Assembly: GCA_020850415.1 (NCBI GenBank)
Contig: JADZER010000004.1
Location: 102,219-166,218, forward strand
Length of the DNA stretch: 64,000 bases
From: Phycisphaerales bacterium
GTDB lineage: Bacteria; Planctomycetota; Phycisphaerae; Phycisphaerales; UBA1924
Direction: 5' to 3'
Each line of letters begins with the position of its first letter. Position 1 is the stretch's first letter. This document shows positions 9,032-57,875 of this stretch, piece after piece. The notes below the pieces were generated by a model. It worked only from the letters and a program-made list of their open reading frames with translations, ran no database searches and had not been told where the DNA came from. The position numbers and the translations under genes were made by a program.

Positions 9032-9046
9032 GGGGGGCTCAAGCGC

Positions 9047-9085
9047 AGGAAACCAGCAAAGCAGCAAAGCAGCAAAGCAGGAAAT
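9047..9085. repeat. AGCAAAGC tandem arm (half palindrome)
   Basis: Three copies of an 8-bp AGCAAAGC unit lie directly upstream of the glycosyltransferase start. I see no matching inverted arm nearby. In the gene's frame it would read FAALLLCW, which looks like a false membrane segment. Confidence 0.7.
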
Positions 9086-17306: not shown

Positions 17307-17431
17307 AAGCTCAAAGCGGAAAGCTCATAGCTCAAATTGAGGCACTCGGCGCCGGTGCTTGGCTGGTGCTCCTGTACCGAGTGTCTCGATTTGAGCTTTT
17401 CGCTTTTCGCTTTTCGCTTTTCGCTTTGAGT
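17307..17431. repeat. AAAAGCG palindrome with 7-bp tandem units
   Basis: Left arm 17307-17349 (AAGCTCAAAGCGGAAAGCTC... to GGCACTCGG) pairs imperfectly with right arm 17377-17431 (CCGAGTGTCTCGATTTGAGC, then CTTTTCG repeated at 7-bp spacing). The loop is about 27 bp. It separates coaD from the MBL gene. Confidence 0.8.
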
Positions 17432-21229: not shown

Positions 21230-22642
21230 CTATTCCTCCCGCGGGATCAGCCCCAGCTGCCTGTACTTCTCCCGGTACTTGGCCGCGAGCCTGGTCTGCT
21301 TGTTCTCCAGGTCGATCGCCCGCCCGTCGATGAACGCCAGCTCGACATTGCTGAGCACATCGAGCGGGTGGCCCGTGGTCACGATCAGCGTCGCCGACTT
21401 GCCGGCCTCCAGCGAGCCGTAGTCGGCGCCGACGCCGAAGATCTCCGCCGGCGTGAGCGTCAGCGCCCGCACCCCGTCGTCGGGCGACAGGCCGTGGGCG
21501 ACGGCGATCGCGACGGCGTAGGGCAGCGACCGCTCGTGCGGCGTGTCGTCGCCGGACATGAACGAGTACGGGACGCCCGCCCCCTGGAGCTGCTGGGGGC
21601 GCGTGTACAGGTCGTCGTAGGGCGAGTCGTCCCGCTTGGGCATGCGGAAGCTGGTCTCGAGGATGACCGATGCGCCCGCGCTCTTGAGGGCGTCGAGGCA
21701 CATGTGCGAGTCCCGCCCGCCCACGATCACCGGGCGCAGGCCGTGCTCGGCGGCGAAGGCCAGGGCGCCGGTGATCTGGTCGTAGTCGTTGGCCCGGAAG
21801 AAGGTGGGGAGCTGGTGCTCGGCGCTCGGCAGCACGCCCGCGCTCGCCTCGTAGCGCAGGTCCGTCGGGTGATCGCCGGCCATCGCCTGATACGCCGCCG
21901 CGTTGTCGAAGAACTCGTCGAGCCGGCGGATCGCCCGGTCGTAGCCGCTGGTCTGGTCCTCCTCCTCCTCCTCCATCCACCACGCGCGGACGGCGCGGCC
22001 GAGGGGGAAGTTCACGACCAGCCCCGCGTCGCCGACCACCGCCATGTCCTCGGTCGTCCAGCCGTCGAGGCGGATGAGGCCGGCCCGGCCGGGGATGAGC
22101 CCCGTCGGCTCGGGGCCCGAGAGGCTGAGGCGCGCGGTGGGGAAGACGCCCGCGAGCAGGACGCCGTTGGAGCGCGTGACCGGGAGCAGCGTCGAGTCGG
22201 GGTTGACCGCCACCGCCGCCCGCACCTCGGGGGTCATCGCGCTCGACTCGCTCATGTCGTCGCTGGCGCGCACGGCCCCGATCTCGGTCAGACCGAGCTG
22301 GGAGTAGGGGCTGATGAGCCCGGGCCAGACATGCAGGCCCGTCGCGTCGATCTCGATCACCTCGGTGCCGGGGGCGAAGCCGGAGACCATCCCCTCGCCG
22401 AGGATGCTGGTGATGCGCCCGTGCTCGAAGATGATGCCGCCGCTCTCGATCGTGCCGCCGCTGACGGTGTGGATGGTGGCGTGGTTGATGTAGACGGTGT
22501 GGGACTGGGGCGGGGCCTTGTGGCCGAGGTCCTGGGCGTGGGCGGCGAGGGGGGTGGTGAGGGAAAGGCAAGAGACGAAGAGACGGAGAGACGGAGAGAC
22601 GGAGTGGGGGGCGGGGCGGGTGGTTCGGTGGGGAGTGTTCAT
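21230..22642 (-). CDS. Secreted amidohydrolase-family protein
   Basis: 470 residues. The composite beta-sandwich (YINHATIHTVSGGTIESGGI), the TIM-barrel segments and the C-terminal NVELAFIDGRAIDLENK strand place it in the amidohydrolase superfamily. The usual HxH after the first barrel strand is lost (HVWPGLISPYSQLGLTEIGA), so metal binding is doubtful. A signal peptide ends at AHAQ. Its hydrophobic core (residues about 11-25, SVSPSLRLFVSCLSL) is encoded by a CGGAGAGA repeat arm. The start overlaps the stop of the larger upstream amidohydrolase by four bases (ATGA), so the two are translationally coupled and probably act together. Confidence 0.8.
   Translation of the reverse strand: MNTPHRTTRPAPHSVSPSLRLFVSCLSLTTPLAAHAQDLGHKAPPQSHTVYINHATIHTVSGGTIESGGIIFEHGRITSILGEGMVSGFAPGTEVIEIDATGLHVWPGLISPYSQLGLTEIGAVRASDDMSESSAMTPEVRAAVAVNPDSTLLPVTRSNGVLLAGVFPTARLSLSGPEPTGLIPGRAGLIRLDGWTTEDMAVVGDAGLVVNFPLGRAVRAWWMEEEEEDQTSGYDRAIRRLDEFFDNAAAYQAMAGDHPTDLRYEASAGVLPSAEHQLPTFFRANDYDQITGALAFAAEHGLRPVIVGGRDSHMCLDALKSAGASVILETSFRMPKRDDSPYDDLYTRPQQLQGAGVPYSFMSGDDTPHERSLPYAVAIAVAHGLSPDDGVRALTLTPAEIFGVGADYGSLEAGKSATLIVTTGHPLDVLSNVELAFIDGRAIDLENKQTRLAAKYREKYRQLGLIPREE
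22570..22610. repeat. GACGGAGA tandem arm (half palindrome) in a signal-peptide region
   Basis: An 8-bp unit (GACGGAGA, first copy GACGAAGA) is repeated about four times and followed by a G run, very like the arms at 23491 and 23961. It lies inside the 5' end of the amidohydrolase gene. No inverse arm is seen nearby. Confidence 0.75.
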
Positions 22643-25600
22643 CGGTGGCCTCCGAGCTGGAGTTCGGTGACGCCGCAGTCGCCGCAGCGGTGGTCGGCGG
22701 GGTTGATGCCGCGGAGGTAGAGGTCGAGGTAGTGTCGCGTGCGTGCGGCGGCGGCGATGCGCTCGCGGAGGGAGCCTCGGGTCGGGTTCTCGTCGGTCAT
22801 GTTGTTCTCACCGGCGTCGTCCTCGGGCTCGGGCTTGGCCTTGGGCGCGCCCTTGGTGAGGATCTTCTGGGTGATGCGGGTGCGGTGCGCCGCGTTCTTC
22901 TCGCGGAGGGCCTCGTCGCGCTCCAGACTGAAGTACTCGCGCCCGTCGATCCAGGCCGCCTCGCACATGGAGAACGAGCTCAGCGGCTCGCCCGACCAGA
23001 TCGCCAGGTCCGCGTCCTTGCCGACCTCGATCGAGCCGACGCGAGAGTCGATGCCGAGCTGGATCGCGGGGTTGATGGTGACGAACTTCAGGGCGTCCTC
23101 CTTGCTGAGGCGCCCGCCCGAATACTTGTACGCCTTCGCGGCCTCGACATGCATCCGCCGCGCCAGCTCGTCGGAGTCGGAGTTGTAGCTCGTGAGCACG
23201 CCCACCTCGGTCTGCAGCGGCCCGGCCTGGGCGATCCCGTCCTGCACCTCGACCTTGTACGCCCACCAGTCGGCGAAGAGCGACGCGCCGACCGCGTGCT
23301 CCTTGACCGCCTCGGCGACCTTGTAGACCTCGAGGCCATGCTGGAAGGTGCCGATCTTGAATCCGAAGTCCTCGGCCACGCGGCAGAGCATGAGGATCTC
23401 GTCTTGCCTGTAGGAATGACAATGCACAAGTCGTTCGCCTGCGAGGATCTCGGCGAGGGCCTCGAGTTCCAGGTCTCGCCTGGGGGCGACAAGCGACGGA
23501 GCGACGGAGCGACGAAGCGACGAAGGGGGGCTGGCTGCGGTCAGCCTTGCTGGTTCTTGGCTTCCAGGCTCCGGATGAGGCCTTGCAACACCCGGTCGGT
23601 CTCCTGCATCAGGTCGATCGTTTGCTGGGCTGCCTGCATCATCGTCATCGAAGTCGCCAGCTCGTAGTGTGTCATCGTCTCGTGGAGGGAACCTCTTGCG
23701 ATCCGAAGAAAGCGGATGTAGTCCGGTCGGCTCTGACGCCCGTGGCCCTCCGCGATGTTGGCGGCCACCGATGCCGCCGAATCCCTCATCTGCCGGGTCA
23801 GCCCGAACCGCTCGTCCCGCGGCATCTTCACCGAGTCCCGATAGACCGCTCTGGCCATGTCCATCACTTTCTGCCACGCGATCAGATCTCGGAAGGTCCT
23901 TATCTGCATGCTCCATGCCCCCTGGCAGGCCCCGGTTCTGCTCCGCAGCGTACTCGATGTCCCCCTCCGTCGCTCCGTCGCTCCGTCGCTCCGTCGCTTG
24001 GGCTGCCGAATACTCCCTCGCCGCCATGAACCGATCCCGGATCAGCGTCTCCACCCCCATGCGCGTCTGCGGGTAGCGCGTCCCGTCGCTCTCCCAGTTC
24101 GACTGTTTCACATTCTCGCCCAGGGCGAACTTGATGCCGGGCTTGGCGCCCTCGAAGTGCATGTCGTCGGGGTGGGCGACGCCCCAGCGGACCTTGTTGG
24201 TCTGGGTCTGGCCGCCGATGGGGTTGGCCGAGCCGTGCATGCTGTTGACGGTGGTCACGCCGCCGGCGAGCTGGCGGTACCAGTTGATGCTGTCGGGGTC
24301 GGTGACATCGCCGATGCGGACCTCGGCGGTGACGGCCTGCCCGCCCTCGTTCACGCCGCGGCTGATGCCGGTGTGCGAGTGTGCATCGAGCAGGCCGGGG
24401 GTGATGTGCTTGCCTTCGAGGTCGATCATGACCGGGTCGTGACGGGTCAGGATGTCGATCACACCGCCCGGCTGCACGGCGATGATCTTGCCCTCTTCGA
24501 TGGCCATCCAGCCGTTCTCGATCACGCCGGCCGGGCCGCTGGTCCAGATGGTGGCGTTGTGGAAGATGACGGTCTGCTGCGCGGGCAGTTCCTTCGCGGC
24601 GTAGGGGCCGAAGGGGTAGCCGGGGAGGTCGGCGGGGGGGAGGTCTTCGGGTTGGTCGCTATCAGCCTCGTCGTCCTCGTCGGCTTCGTCAGCTTCGTCG
24701 TCCTCGGGTTGGACCCTCGCTGGCGCTTCGGGCTCTGTTCTGGTCGCGGTCCATTCGAAGGGCGTGTTGTCGGCGCCCAGGCCCGTGCCGCGGATCACGC
24801 CGTCGGGGCCGAGGACGCCGGTGATGACATAAGTGCCCGAGCCGTCGTCGGTGTCGTCGAGGAGGAAGCTGATGGTGCGGGTGTTGGCGTCGATCTTGAC
24901 CTCGCGGGCGTCGCCCTCGTTGGCGTCGTCGCCCCCCTCTTCCGTTGGGCCCTCGATGCCCGTGACCTTCTCGCCCTCGATGATGATCCGCATCTCGAAG
25001 AACTCGCCGACGCGGAAAGTCCACTCGCCGTCGAAGGGCGGCGGCGGGGCGTTGATCGCGTGGCGCACGCCGTCGATCCAGACATCGAGGATCTCGGCGT
25101 CCTTGTCCGCGGCGTCGAAGAGGTCGCCCGTCGCAACGACGAGGTTCGCGAGCTTGCCGGTCTCGACCGTGCCCATGCCGTCGCTCGCGCCGAGCATGGC
25201 GGCCGGGGTGGTGGTGAGCATGGCCAGGGCGCGGTCGGGGGCCAGGCCGCCGGTCTTCATCGCCTCGCGCAGGTTCTTGTCGAACTTCTCGCCCTTGCGC
25301 AGCCCCCCGGCGGTGAGCGCGACGACCACGCCCGCCTCGTCCAAGCGCCGGGCGTTGGTCGGGGCCTGCTCCCAGGTCATGAGGTCGCGGAGGTCGGTCG
25401 AGTCGGCCTTGCCGATCGTGGCGAGGTCCGGGGTCTCCGGGAACGACAGCGGCAGGATGTAGTGGGGCTGGTAGCCGCTGTTGCTCTCGGGCCCGATCGG
25501 CAGCGCGCCCAGCCGGCGGAACTCGGTGCCGCAGCCGAGGACGATCGGGATGCGCCCGAACTCCCGGGCGATCTTGAAGGCGCGGAGGCCCTCGAGCTCG

Positions 25601-26418
25601 TCGCTCGTGCGGAAGACCATCGCTAGGCCCCGGCCCGCGTCGAGGTGCGCCAGACACGAACCGTCGGCCGCGCTCGGACCCTGAGAGGCAAGCCAGTCCG
25701 CGTCACTCAGCGTCTGACGCATCAGCGCGATGACCCCCATCTGCGAGCCCGGGTACCCGCTGAACTCGCCGCGGCTGCCGGGCGCACCCCGATTGGTGAA
25801 CGCCAGCGTCTGGTACACATCCTCGAGGTACACCGGCGGGCGCCCGTCGGCCGGGTCGGCCGGGTGTTCCGCCAGGCTCACCAGCGCCGCCCGCCCGGCG
25901 AAGATCCCGCCCTCCGGCGCGATCGCCGCCGCCGTGAACCCCAGCCCCCGCAGCCGCTCGGCATCGCCCGCCGGCACGCCCCCCGCGTCGAGGGCCGATC
26001 GCTGGGGCGTGACGCCGGCGTTCCAGTGGGATCCGGGGGCGTCGAGGTCCGGGCGCGGGGCGTCGATCGCCAGGTGGGCGTCGATGAACCCCGCGTAGAC
26101 ATGCATCCCGGCGAGGTCGTACACCTGCGCGCCCGGCGGCGGGGCGAAGCGGACGGTCGTCATGTCGGTGACGCCGACGATCCGGTCGCCCTCGATCTCG
26201 ACGATCGCCGACCCGATGACCACGCCGGGGCTGACATGCACCGCCGGCCCGAGGAGGAAGTGCCAGTCGGGGTTGGTCTGGCGCGGCCCGTTGGGCTGCG
26301 GGTCCAGGGGGTTGCCGGTGTTGTTGCCGGTGTAGTTGCCGGATTGTGCGAGGGCCGGGGCGGCCAGGGCAAGGCAGGCGGCGCAGGCGACAGCGAGGTG
26401 GTTGCGTTGGCGGGTCAT
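22639..26418 (-). CDS. Two-domain secreted amidohydrolase interrupted in frame by a repeat element
   Basis: 1259 residues. A signal peptide (cut near ALAQ) is followed by a first amidohydrolase-like domain (to about 450) that lacks HxH (GFIDAHLAIDA), an acidic linker, and a second domain with intact LLDAHSHTGISRG. Past RDRFMAAREYSAAQ the frame enters a foreign 509-bp element (residues about 807-976, ATERRSDGATEG to SLRRSVAPSL). It resumes family sequence at PRRDLELEALAEILAGERLV and VHCHSYRQDEILML and runs to a normal C-terminus. The insertion point is a variable linker. A TACGCT box lies seven bases from the ATG. Peptide or cyclic-amide substrates are guessed from the family only. Confidence 0.82.
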   Translation of the reverse strand: MTRQRNHLAVACAACLALAAPALAQSGNYTGNNTGNPLDPQPNGPRQTNPDWHFLLGPAVHVSPGVVIGSAIVEIEGDRIVGVTDMTTVRFAPPPGAQVYDLAGMHVYAGFIDAHLAIDAPRPDLDAPGSHWNAGVTPQRSALDAGGVPAGDAERLRGLGFTAAAIAPEGGIFAGRAALVSLAEHPADPADGRPPVYLEDVYQTLAFTNRGAPGSRGEFSGYPGSQMGVIALMRQTLSDADWLASQGPSAADGSCLAHLDAGRGLAMVFRTSDELEGLRAFKIAREFGRIPIVLGCGTEFRRLGALPIGPESNSGYQPHYILPLSFPETPDLATIGKADSTDLRDLMTWEQAPTNARRLDEAGVVVALTAGGLRKGEKFDKNLREAMKTGGLAPDRALAMLTTTPAAMLGASDGMGTVETGKLANLVVATGDLFDAADKDAEILDVWIDGVRHAINAPPPPFDGEWTFRVGEFFEMRIIIEGEKVTGIEGPTEEGGDDANEGDAREVKIDANTRTISFLLDDTDDGSGTYVITGVLGPDGVIRGTGLGADNTPFEWTATRTEPEAPARVQPEDDEADEADEDDEADSDQPEDLPPADLPGYPFGPYAAKELPAQQTVIFHNATIWTSGPAGVIENGWMAIEEGKIIAVQPGGVIDILTRHDPVMIDLEGKHITPGLLDAHSHTGISRGVNEGGQAVTAEVRIGDVTDPDSINWYRQLAGGVTTVNSMHGSANPIGGQTQTNKVRWGVAHPDDMHFEGAKPGIKFALGENVKQSNWESDGTRYPQTRMGVETLIRDRFMAAREYSAAQATERRSDGATEGDIEYAAEQNRGLPGGMEHADKDLPRSDRVAESDGHGQSGLSGLGEDAAGRAVRADPADEGFGGIGGRQHRGGPRASEPTGLHPLSSDRKRFPPRDDDTLRAGDFDDDDAGSPANDRPDAGDRPGVARPHPEPGSQEPARLTAASPPSSLRRSVAPSLVAPRRDLELEALAEILAGERLVHCHSYRQDEILMLCRVAEDFGFKIGTFQHGLEVYKVAEAVKEHAVGASLFADWWAYKVEVQDGIAQAGPLQTEVGVLTSYNSDSDELARRMHVEAAKAYKYSGGRLSKEDALKFVTINPAIQLGIDSRVGSIEVGKDADLAIWSGEPLSSFSMCEAAWIDGREYFSLERDEALREKNAAHRTRITQKILTKGAPKAKPEPEDDAGENNMTDENPTRGSLRERIAAAARTRHYLDLYLRGINPADHRCGDCGVTELQLGGHR
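23491..23999 (-). mobile_element. Inverted-repeat element carrying a four-helix-bundle gene
   Basis: 509 bp bounded by 38-40 bp inverted arms: 23491-23530 (AAGCGACGGAGCGACGGAGC, then GACGAAGC units and a G run) and 23961-23999 (the inverse, with two G/A differences). The arms are 8-bp tandem units. The interior is filled by one gene for an S23/Avd-like protein. The element has no transposase of a known family and no clear target duplication, and it leaves the host frame open. Confidence 0.8.
23541..23909 (-). CDS. Four-helix bundle protein (S23 / Avd-like family)
   Basis: 122 residues with the family hallmarks: FRDLIAWQKVMDMARAVYR at the N-terminus, ERFGLTRQMRDSAASV, the nearly invariant NIAEGHGRQS, then FLRIARGSLHE. 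Length and helix pattern match known members, such as the protein encoded inside intervening sequences of 23S rRNA and the Avd accessory protein of diversity-generating retroelements; these form pentameric nucleic-acid-binding bundles. It lies wholly inside the amidohydrolase gene, on the same strand but in another frame. ATG 23909 is preceded by GGAG within a few bases. It presumably binds the transcript or DNA of its own element; this is inference. Confidence 0.88.
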   Translation of the reverse strand: MQIRTFRDLIAWQKVMDMARAVYRDSVKMPRDERFGLTRQMRDSAASVAANIAEGHGRQSRPDYIRFLRIARGSLHETMTHYELATSMTMMQAAQQTIDLMQETDRVLQGLIRSLEAKNQQG

Positions 26419-57714: not shown

Positions 57715-57875
57715 TTTCACCACAGAGGACACAGAGGTACACAGAGAAGAGCATTATTGGCCGCGGATCAACGCGGATGAGCGCGGATACAAGACAGTGC
57801 TCCAAGGCATGTATCCGATCCGCGTTCATCCGCGGCATGTCTTCCTCTGTGCCCCTCTGTGCCCTCCGTGGTGAA
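57715..57875. repeat. Nested double palindrome between cbs and cgl
   Basis: Outer arms: 57715-57750 (CACCACAGAGGACACAGAGG, then TACACAGAG) with 57838-57875 (its inverse CTCTGTG units). Inner arms: 57761-57791 (CCGCGGATCAACGCGGATGA, then GCGCGGATAC) with 57811-57835 (GTATCCGATCCGCGTTCATC, then CGCGG). One repeat type sits inside another. Confidence 0.88.

What the first reader, a model, noticed from the sequence alone, without database searches (positions are those of the whole stretch)
23491..23999. Four-helix-bundle element inserted in frame inside an amidohydrolase gene
Seen: a 509-bp block with 38-40 bp inverted arms of 8-bp units (GACGGAGC) encloses one gene for an S23/Avd-like protein, and the host amidohydrolase gene continues in the same frame on both sides (AAREYSAAQ before, PRRDLELEALAEIL after). 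The insert would add about 170 non-family residues. Known: S23-family genes occur in intervening sequences of 23S rRNA, bounded by complementary ends, and as Avd in retroelements. Inference: this is a self-contained mobile element that targets coding genes. Its arms would fold into a long RNA stem in the host mRNA, so RNA-level removal, tolerance as a protein insert, or use of the internal gene as a separate cistron are all possible. Such an arrangement in a protein-coding gene is not one I know to be described.
Basis: partly seen in the sequence, partly recalled or inferred. Interest (0 to 1): 0.92.

Follow-up and report, generated by a model that had tools for sequence, protein, structure and literature searches.

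The report
Heptamer-armed S23 elements inside bacterial genes
A small gene (S23) framed by mirror-image arrays of 8-base repeats sits in frame inside an enzyme gene that lacks it in related species, and the same layout, with 7- or 8-base repeats that differ from copy to copy, surrounds most S23 genes checked across bacteria, so it is likely one copy of a widespread, little-noticed mobile element whose insert is predicted to be translated as an extra loop of the host enzyme.

Summary
A 122-aa S23/IVP gene (PF05635, 5e-30) lies between 40-nt arms (95% complementary, 8-bp units). It adds 172 in-frame, stop-free residues to an amidohydrolase. In 14 related genomes read across the junction the block is absent.

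The layout is general. Inverted arrays flank 55 of 76 S23 loci from this genome and relatives, 67 of 85 from named genomes of many phyla and plasmids, and 29 of 34 from Luteimonas kin. Controls give 1.1-2.6%. Units are 7 or 8 bp in 143 of 151 elements, differ between lineages, and agree between the arms of one element.

Plasmids and Rhizobium give filled and empty alleles: gene and arms arrive together. Two sites show a 5-bp duplication (GTAAT, TTCTA) overlapping a stop codon. In 84 of 122 elements a sense gene ends within 15 bp of the upstream arm. Seven lie inside genes; five of these are open and in phase. Three genera carry one in the same DnaE2 loop.

The published Coxiella 23S rRNA intervening sequence has heptamers and complementary ends, so IVSs are probably the rRNA-borne case. 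S23-less hairpins in lipA, carB and uvrA resemble Rickettsia palindromic elements.

Mobility is well supported; the moving enzyme is unknown; translation through the insert is inferred.

The parts
23485..24000 (-). Inserted block = host residues 807-978 (172 aa), absent from the orthologues read
23490..23529 (.). Arm, array of 8-bp units (GACGGAGC/GACGAAGC), downstream side of the S23 gene
23961..24000 (.). Inverted arm, CTCCGTCG x4, upstream side of the S23 gene
23541..23909 (-). S23/IVP four-helix-bundle gene, 122 aa, same strand as the host but another frame
22639..26418 (-). Host amidohydrolase ORF, 1259 aa, continuous in one frame through the block
22570..22604 (.). Related 8-bp array (AGAGACGG) without S23, in the 5' end of the neighbouring ORF 21230-22642(-)

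Best explanation
The block at 23485-24000 is an S23 gene with inverted arms of 8-bp repeats, inserted in frame in an amidohydrolase gene that lacks it in the related species read, and it is likely one copy of a mobile element class found across bacteria that usually settles at stop codons of transcribed genes. Shown: gene and arms arrive together as a unit (413-843 bp, median 483); two junctions carry a 5-bp duplication; the unit is inherited with the S23 lineage; five of seven copies seen inside genes are open and in phase with the host. Inferred: the S23 gene has no promoter of its own and is made from the host's transcript as an extra cistron; in the amidohydrolase and in DnaE2 the ribosome reads through the element and the product sits as an extra loop in a permissive place; the long stem in the mRNA would be a substrate for RNase III, as in the 23S rRNA IVS. 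Least certain: how it moves. I favour a DNA route in which the S23 oligomer binds the hairpin formed by its own arms and an enzyme supplied in trans makes a 5-bp staggered cut. S23-less hairpins in lipA, carB and uvrA, and single arrays in deoC and rlmN, would be non-autonomous or decayed copies.
For: Arms: score >=30 in 55 of 76 S23 loci against 2.4% of 5700 mismatched flank pairs, 67 of 85 against 2.6% of 7140, 29 of 34 (no control of its own), and 11 of 966 random windows. Best period 7 in 113, 8 in 30, other in 8 of 151 elements, three of which are repeats. Block absent from host orthologues. Exact empty site at about 97% identity: AAAAAGTAATTAACAA against GTAAT|element|GTAAT; TTCTA at another site. 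Presence/absence at the Rhizobium nuoC/nuoD junction, 17 of 40 matched through the element. S23 genes 79-83% identical with the same TCAGRAG heptamer at three different sites, each with empty alleles. Arm similarity rises from 0.17-0.18 to 0.46 with S23 identity; the antisense control stays at 0.12-0.16. Sense gene ends within 15 bp of the upstream arm in 84 of 122, opposite orientation 33, random positions 3.7% of 2440. Outside genes 20 of 690 frames are open. Three DnaE2 insertions at one loop with different units and S23 branches, one antisense and two sense. S23 dN/dS median 0.09 over 33 pairs. Coxiella IVS heptamers and RNase III excision: PMC4990558 passages.
Against: L136 lies out of frame in a methylase-like gene and L240 truncates the 3' end of its host, so in-gene copies are not always tolerated in frame. 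My search for out-of-frame cases was narrower than that for in-frame ones (against 54), so five of seven is biased upwards. Duplications could be read at only 2 of 6 junction sets, and not in the window's own case. Arms contain stop codons, so part of the stop-codon signal is made by the arms themselves, though that cannot explain the 84:33 asymmetry. 21 of 76 and 18 of 85 loci have no arms by this test, among them whole subfamilies (L035-L037, L059; L042, L044, L068; L008, L087-L089). The 80 loci are the best-scoring of 573 and so not a random sample. No expression data. No transposase or RT was found with the element, and no RVT_1 in the genome, which is 93% complete.
Confidence: 0.75

Rival explanations
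1. The element is removed at RNA level, as an intron or by RNase III excision followed by joining, so the host protein is normal.
For: The arms form a 40-bp stem in the predicted RNA, and the Coxiella IVS with the same layout is cut out by RNase III (PMC4990558).
Against: If removed, the element need not be open in the host frame, yet five of seven in-gene copies are open and in phase, while outside genes 20 of 690 frames are open. IVS excision leaves the rRNA in fragments, which would cut an mRNA in two. No Rfam match in 23000-24500.
Confidence: 0.12
2. The repeat arrays were there first and S23 genes hitch-hike into them.
For: Arrays without S23 exist in the genome, and heptamer arrays are common in several bacteria (PMC4679880, PMC4692102, passages).
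Against: Empty alleles at sites 1 and 5 hold no array and differ from filled ones by gene plus both arms plus a 5-bp duplication. Units follow S23 lineage. L237 has arms of the same unit and the same left boundary at a site where two relatives carry arms plus S23, which suggests loss of the gene from the element.
Confidence: 0.08
3. S23 cassettes are kept because they serve the host, for example as stem-binding regulators of the operon they sit in, and are only rarely mobile.
For: Strong purifying selection on S23 in Rhizobium, repeated use of the same operon junctions (nuoC/nuoD, accB/accC, pdh by my reading), sense orientation.
Against: Presence/absence varies among close relatives, hosts are unrelated genes, an S23-less remnant persists (L237), and copies inside coding genes have no evident regulatory role.
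Confidence: 0.2
4. Assembly artefact or chance tandem repeats.
For: The genome is a draft of 84 contigs.
Against: The layout recurs in complete plasmids and many unrelated genomes, with controls at 1.1-2.6%.
Confidence: 0.01

Closest known systems
23S rRNA intervening sequence (IVS) with S23p ORF, as in Coxiella
   Same: S23/IVP gene, 428-nt element, complementary ends forming a 28-bp stem, tandem heptamers (GACAGAT) at the 5' end with varying copy number (PMC4990558, passages read).
   Different: Here the hosts are protein-coding genes and gene junctions. None of 197 S23 loci held the rRNA motifs tested (motifs recalled, no positive control), and none of 20 scanned with Rfam held rRNA. Unit sequence varies by lineage, and a 5-bp duplication is seen at two sites.
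Rickettsia palindromic elements (RPE)
   Same: Palindromic inserts of about 150 bp, in frame inside unrelated coding genes (PMC10969869, passages). S23-less hairpins in lipA, carB and uvrA here are alike.
   Different: The passages describe no S23 gene and no arrays of 7- or 8-bp units. RPE sequences were not compared.
Heptameric repeats of Xanthomonas (GGGAATC) and Nostoc (GGGGAYT); cyanobacterial STRR (name recalled)
   Same: Same unit length and inverted pairs (70 and 75 pairs in two xanthomonads, PMC4692102). S23 arms among Luteimonas kin carry GGGAATC- and GGGATTC-like units; a Nostoc S23 has TGGGGAG arms (L095).
   Different: Published as quadruplex-forming repeats that the authors generally did not find associated with mobile elements; the terms S23 and four helix do not occur.
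Avd of diversity-generating retroelements
   Same: Weak match of the window protein to DivGenRetAVD; PMC10053308 calls PF05635 Avd-like (passage).
   Different: No reverse transcriptase match in the genome; S23 scores above its own family cut-off and far below the Avd cut-off.

Membership tests
23S rRNA IVS element | encodes an S23/IVP protein | tested here: met
   PF05635 5.4e-30, TIGR02436 1.8e-30
23S rRNA IVS element | complementary ends that close a stem around the ORF | tested here: met
   40-nt arms, 95% complementary; fold with full stem
23S rRNA IVS element | lies within a 23S rRNA gene | tested here: not met
   Lies in a protein-coding ORF; Rfam search of 23000-24500 empty; no rRNA in the 20 S23 loci scanned with Rfam
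23S rRNA IVS element | excised by RNase III without religation | not testable with these tools
   Needs RNA from the organism
Rickettsia palindromic element | in-frame insertion in coding genes, palindromic | tested here: met
   Amidohydrolase; S23-less hairpins read in frame in lipA, carB and uvrA ORFs
Rickettsia palindromic element | sequence member of an RPE family | not tested
   No RPE sequences were compared
DGR Avd system | reverse transcriptase | tested here: not met
   No RVT_1 match in the genome (93% complete), with 3 of 14 control genomes positive
DGR Avd system | template and variable repeats | not tested
   Not searched for
Transposon with target-site duplication | fixed-length target-site duplication | tested here: inconclusive
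   5 bp at 2 of 6 junction sets (sites 1 and 5); sites 2-4 and Rhizobium too diverged to read
Transposon with target-site duplication | encodes its transposase | tested here: inconclusive
   S23 is the only ORF between the arms that I assigned to a family, and it is no known transposase; overlapping ORFs in other frames were not searched

The most novel reading that the evidence does not exclude
S23 elements are a bacteria-wide class of gene-bearing mobile hairpins that live in transcripts, are steered to the stop codons of translated operons, rewrite their own repeat unit in both arms together, and are the source of many of the unexplained heptamer repeats and in-frame palindromic inserts in bacteria, with the 23S rRNA IVS as the rRNA-borne special case.
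Probability: 0.4. Interest if true: 0.97.

Novelty: new variant of a known kind. Interest (0 to 1): 0.88.

Why it matters
Three old puzzles may meet in one element: what S23/IVP proteins do, why heptamers dominate tandem repeats of many bacteria, and how palindromic inserts enter coding genes in frame. It gives S23 proteins a setting (they would ride operon transcripts inside their own hairpin), it would explain why IVP genes were reported in cas loci (PMC3936711; here L172, L175, L241), and it supplies filled and empty allele pairs in culturable Nostocales and Rhizobium where movement, RNA processing and protein products can be tested directly.

Tried and rejected
Chance or artefact: rejected by mismatched-flank, random-window and array-density controls. 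Retroelement with its own RT: no RVT_1 in the genome. Known RNA family: no Rfam match in 23000-24500; one unrelated Flavo-1 match in 20 loci searched. A fixed arm sequence recognised by all S23 proteins: rejected, since units differ widely between lineages. One inherited DnaE2 insertion: rejected, since L034 groups with the amidohydrolase copy and L091 apart from L002 (supports 0.90 and 0.87), L039 is distant, and orientation and units differ. G013 has 456 bp at the same DnaE2 loop but of another palindromic family. Duplications at sites 2, 3, 4 and in Rhizobium could not be read because the flanks have diverged. No structure prediction and no promoter scan was run.

Rows dropped: the 76-locus set leaves out 5 weak or partial hits (G028:C12, G013:C7, G023:C2 and two pieces of one gene in G011:C325) of the 81 hits. 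One search kept the best 80 of 573. One search gave loci for 30 of its hits only; of 36 loci, two truncated ones were left out. L092 repeats L034, L298 repeats L168 and L300 repeats L141. One search left out L002, L003, L034, L039, L092 and L154 and kept only flanks with GC3 >=0.70 on both sides. For dN/dS, 14 of 17 Rhizobium loci gave an ORF by my motif, and 33 of their 91 pairs passed the saturation and minimum-dS filter. One search used wrong ends for three truncated loci; one search replaces it.

Full report
OBSERVATION. Arms at 23490-23529 and 23961-24000 are 40 nt, 95% complementary and made of 8-bp units. Between them lies a 122-aa ORF on the minus strand that matches PF05635 (5.4e-30) and TIGR02436 (1.8e-30); its best solved relative is XCC0516, entry 2gsc. 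The host ORF 22639-26418(-) has amidohydrolase domains and stays open through the block. Residues 807-978, 172 in number, are missing from relatives.

THE HOST IN RELATIVES. The host protein was sought in 31 genomes, this one included; 25 had a match. In 14 relatives I read the protein across the junction and none has the block; a linker of variable length stands there, for example AAQEYARANNPRRDLELEAL in G002 and AAREYAAADGKRRDLELDAL in G009, longest in G011. In G001 the two matches lie 6 bp apart. So this is an insertion in the present genome, in a loop that varies in length in the family.

THE ARMS BELONG TO S23 GENES. This genome has 8 S23 genes; 7 of 8 pass the arm test, each with its own unit, and L008 does not. 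Of 31 genomes, 23 have S23 hits (81 hits); 76 loci were tested: arms score 30 or more in 55, against 2.4% of 5700 mismatched flank pairs. The best 80 of 573 loci from named genomes of many phyla, plus five plasmid loci, give 67 of 85, against 2.6% of 7140. Among 79 genomes of the family of Luteimonas (L168), 35 have hits; 29 of 34 loci tested from this search and from two single genomes (G071, G072) have arms, many of GGGATTC- or GGGAATC-like units. Random windows of the S23 loci reach the score in 11 of 966. Over these 151 elements the best period is 7 in 113, 8 in 30 and other in 8. Three of the 151 are repeats of one locus: L092 = L034, L298 = L168, L300 = L141. Loci without arms include whole subfamilies such as L035-L037 and L059, which may be settled host genes.

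UNITS. Units differ between elements but the two arms of one element agree (mean normalised similarity 0.67; elements were chosen by arm score). Arm similarity between elements rises with S23 identity, from 0.17-0.18 below 0.3 identity to 0.46 above 0.6 (79 pairs), while the reverse-complement control stays at 0.12-0.16. So the unit is inherited with the gene, and where it has changed it has changed in both arms.

MOVEMENT. On Nostocales plasmids, filled and empty alleles can be compared. Site 1: filled in Trichormus and Scytonema, empty in Aulosira, Nostoc linckia and Tolypothrix at about 97% identity; the empty AAAAAGTAATTAACAA becomes GTAAT-element-GTAAT. The two filled copies differ by 14 bp, two heptamers, in one arm. 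L234 has a shortened remnant at this site. Site 5: TTCTA is duplicated around the element. Sites 2, 3 and 4 are also filled/empty pairs, but a duplication cannot be read. At site 2, L237 has arms of the same unit and the same left boundary but no S23 gene (tblastn with the L171 protein gives no significant hit). The S23 proteins of sites 1, 4 and 5 are 79-83% identical and their arms share TCAGRAG heptamers. In 40 Rhizobium genomes the nuoC/nuoD junction is matched through the element in 17 and only in separate pieces in the others; three empty alleles at 94-95% were read. Among the filled copies three S23 lineages with three units occur, so the spot seems to have been hit repeatedly. S23 there is under purifying selection, median dN/dS 0.09 over 33 usable pairs.

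WHERE IT SITS. An ORF of at least 100 codons in S23 sense ends within 15 bp of the upstream arm in 84 of 122 elements; the mirror case for the other strand is 33 of 122; random positions 3.7% of 2440. Arms carry stops, which inflates both numbers alike, so the excess shows sense orientation at gene ends. By my reading of the flanks (not by HMM) the neighbours include accB/accC in two unrelated genomes, pdhA/pdhB, pdhB/pdhC, nuoC/nuoD, gyrB/gyrA and pgk/tpiA; annotated plasmid records show cas6/cas4 twice and cas10/cmr3 once.

INSIDE GENES. Seven copies were seen inside a host gene. Six are among the 122 (L034 and L092 counted once): the amidohydrolase (L003), error-prone DNA polymerase in three genera at the same loop (L002, L034, L039; NF004225, with Pfam domains on both sides of the insert), a DNA methylase (L100; PF01555 lies wholly on one side, so that the other side belongs to it is my reading) and a second methylase-like gene by my reading (L136). 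Five are open and in phase with the host; L136 is not. The seventh, L240, truncates its host. Outside genes only 20 of 690 frames are open across the element. The in-frame search covered all 122 elements and the out-of-frame search fewer, so the ratio is biased. At the DnaE2 loop 13 relatives have 15-150 bp between the matched parts and G013 has 456 bp; G030 carries an S23-less heptamer hairpin there. The three DnaE2 insertions are best read as independent.

ARRAYS WITHOUT S23. Nine loci of this genome with the window's unit but no S23 were examined. Four have an inverted partner within 300 bp (L016, L018, L019, L020) and five are single arrays. In lipA, carB and uvrA a hairpin, and in deoC and rlmN a single array, is read in frame inside the ORF; all five reach a curated NCBIfam cut-off. 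The hairpins resemble Rickettsia palindromic elements as reviewed in PMC10969869 (passages).

MECHANISM. Best supported: a mobile unit of gene plus arms; expression by read-through from the host operon (inferred); translation through the insert when inside a gene (inferred from the open frames). The predicted mRNA stem would be an RNase III substrate, by analogy with the Coxiella IVS, whose ends lie in the stem and whose 5' region holds tandem heptamers GACAGAT (PMC4990558, passages); the authors think that S23p is probably not made in vivo there, which is against expression in that case. The moving enzyme is unknown; no RT was found in the genome.

KNOWN OR NEW. I read listings, abstracts and passages, not whole papers. 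PMC4692102 reports heptamer repeats and inverted pairs in Xanthomonas and Nostoc and holds neither S23 nor four helix. PMC4679880 reports TAACTGA heptamers in Beggiatoaceae. PMC3936711 reports 18 IVP genes in cas loci. PMC10053308 notes PF05635 as the commonest family in its data and as Avd-like. None of my ten paper searches found S23 elements with heptamer arms in protein-coding hosts; subscription papers are mostly not in the library.

Noticed in passing
L218 (G013 DnaE2 loop): A 456-bp in-frame palindromic insertion of a different repeat family (GCCCCGAAGGGGCGAC...) at the same DnaE2 loop that S23 elements hit in three other genera.
   Followed up: partly
L213 (G030 DnaE2 loop): An S23-less heptamer hairpin (GGGATTT units) of about 150 bp at the same loop.
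   Followed up: partly
window 57721-57864: Inverted arrays of 10-bp units (CACAGAGGTA / CCTCTGTGCC) about 100 bp apart.
   Followed up: no
window 17395-17427 and 9046-9080: Solo arrays of GCTTTTC (7 bp) and GCAGCAAA (8 bp) without S23.
   Followed up: no
L090, L008: Larger S23-like proteins of about 200 aa whose genes contain array-like 9-bp repeats inside the coding frame (TDGTDGTND in L090).
   Followed up: no
L172, L175, L241: S23 genes between cas6 and cas4 of type I-D systems and between cas10 and cmr3, likely riding the operon rather than serving CRISPR.
   Followed up: partly
L013: A cluster of several different 8-bp arrays just upstream of, and in frame with, a prepilin-like start (FTLIELLVVIAII, my reading).
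   Followed up: no
L234: Site-1 allele on Nostoc sp. C052 pC052_E: one arm and a 5' piece of the S23 gene remain, the rest is deleted.
   Followed up: partly
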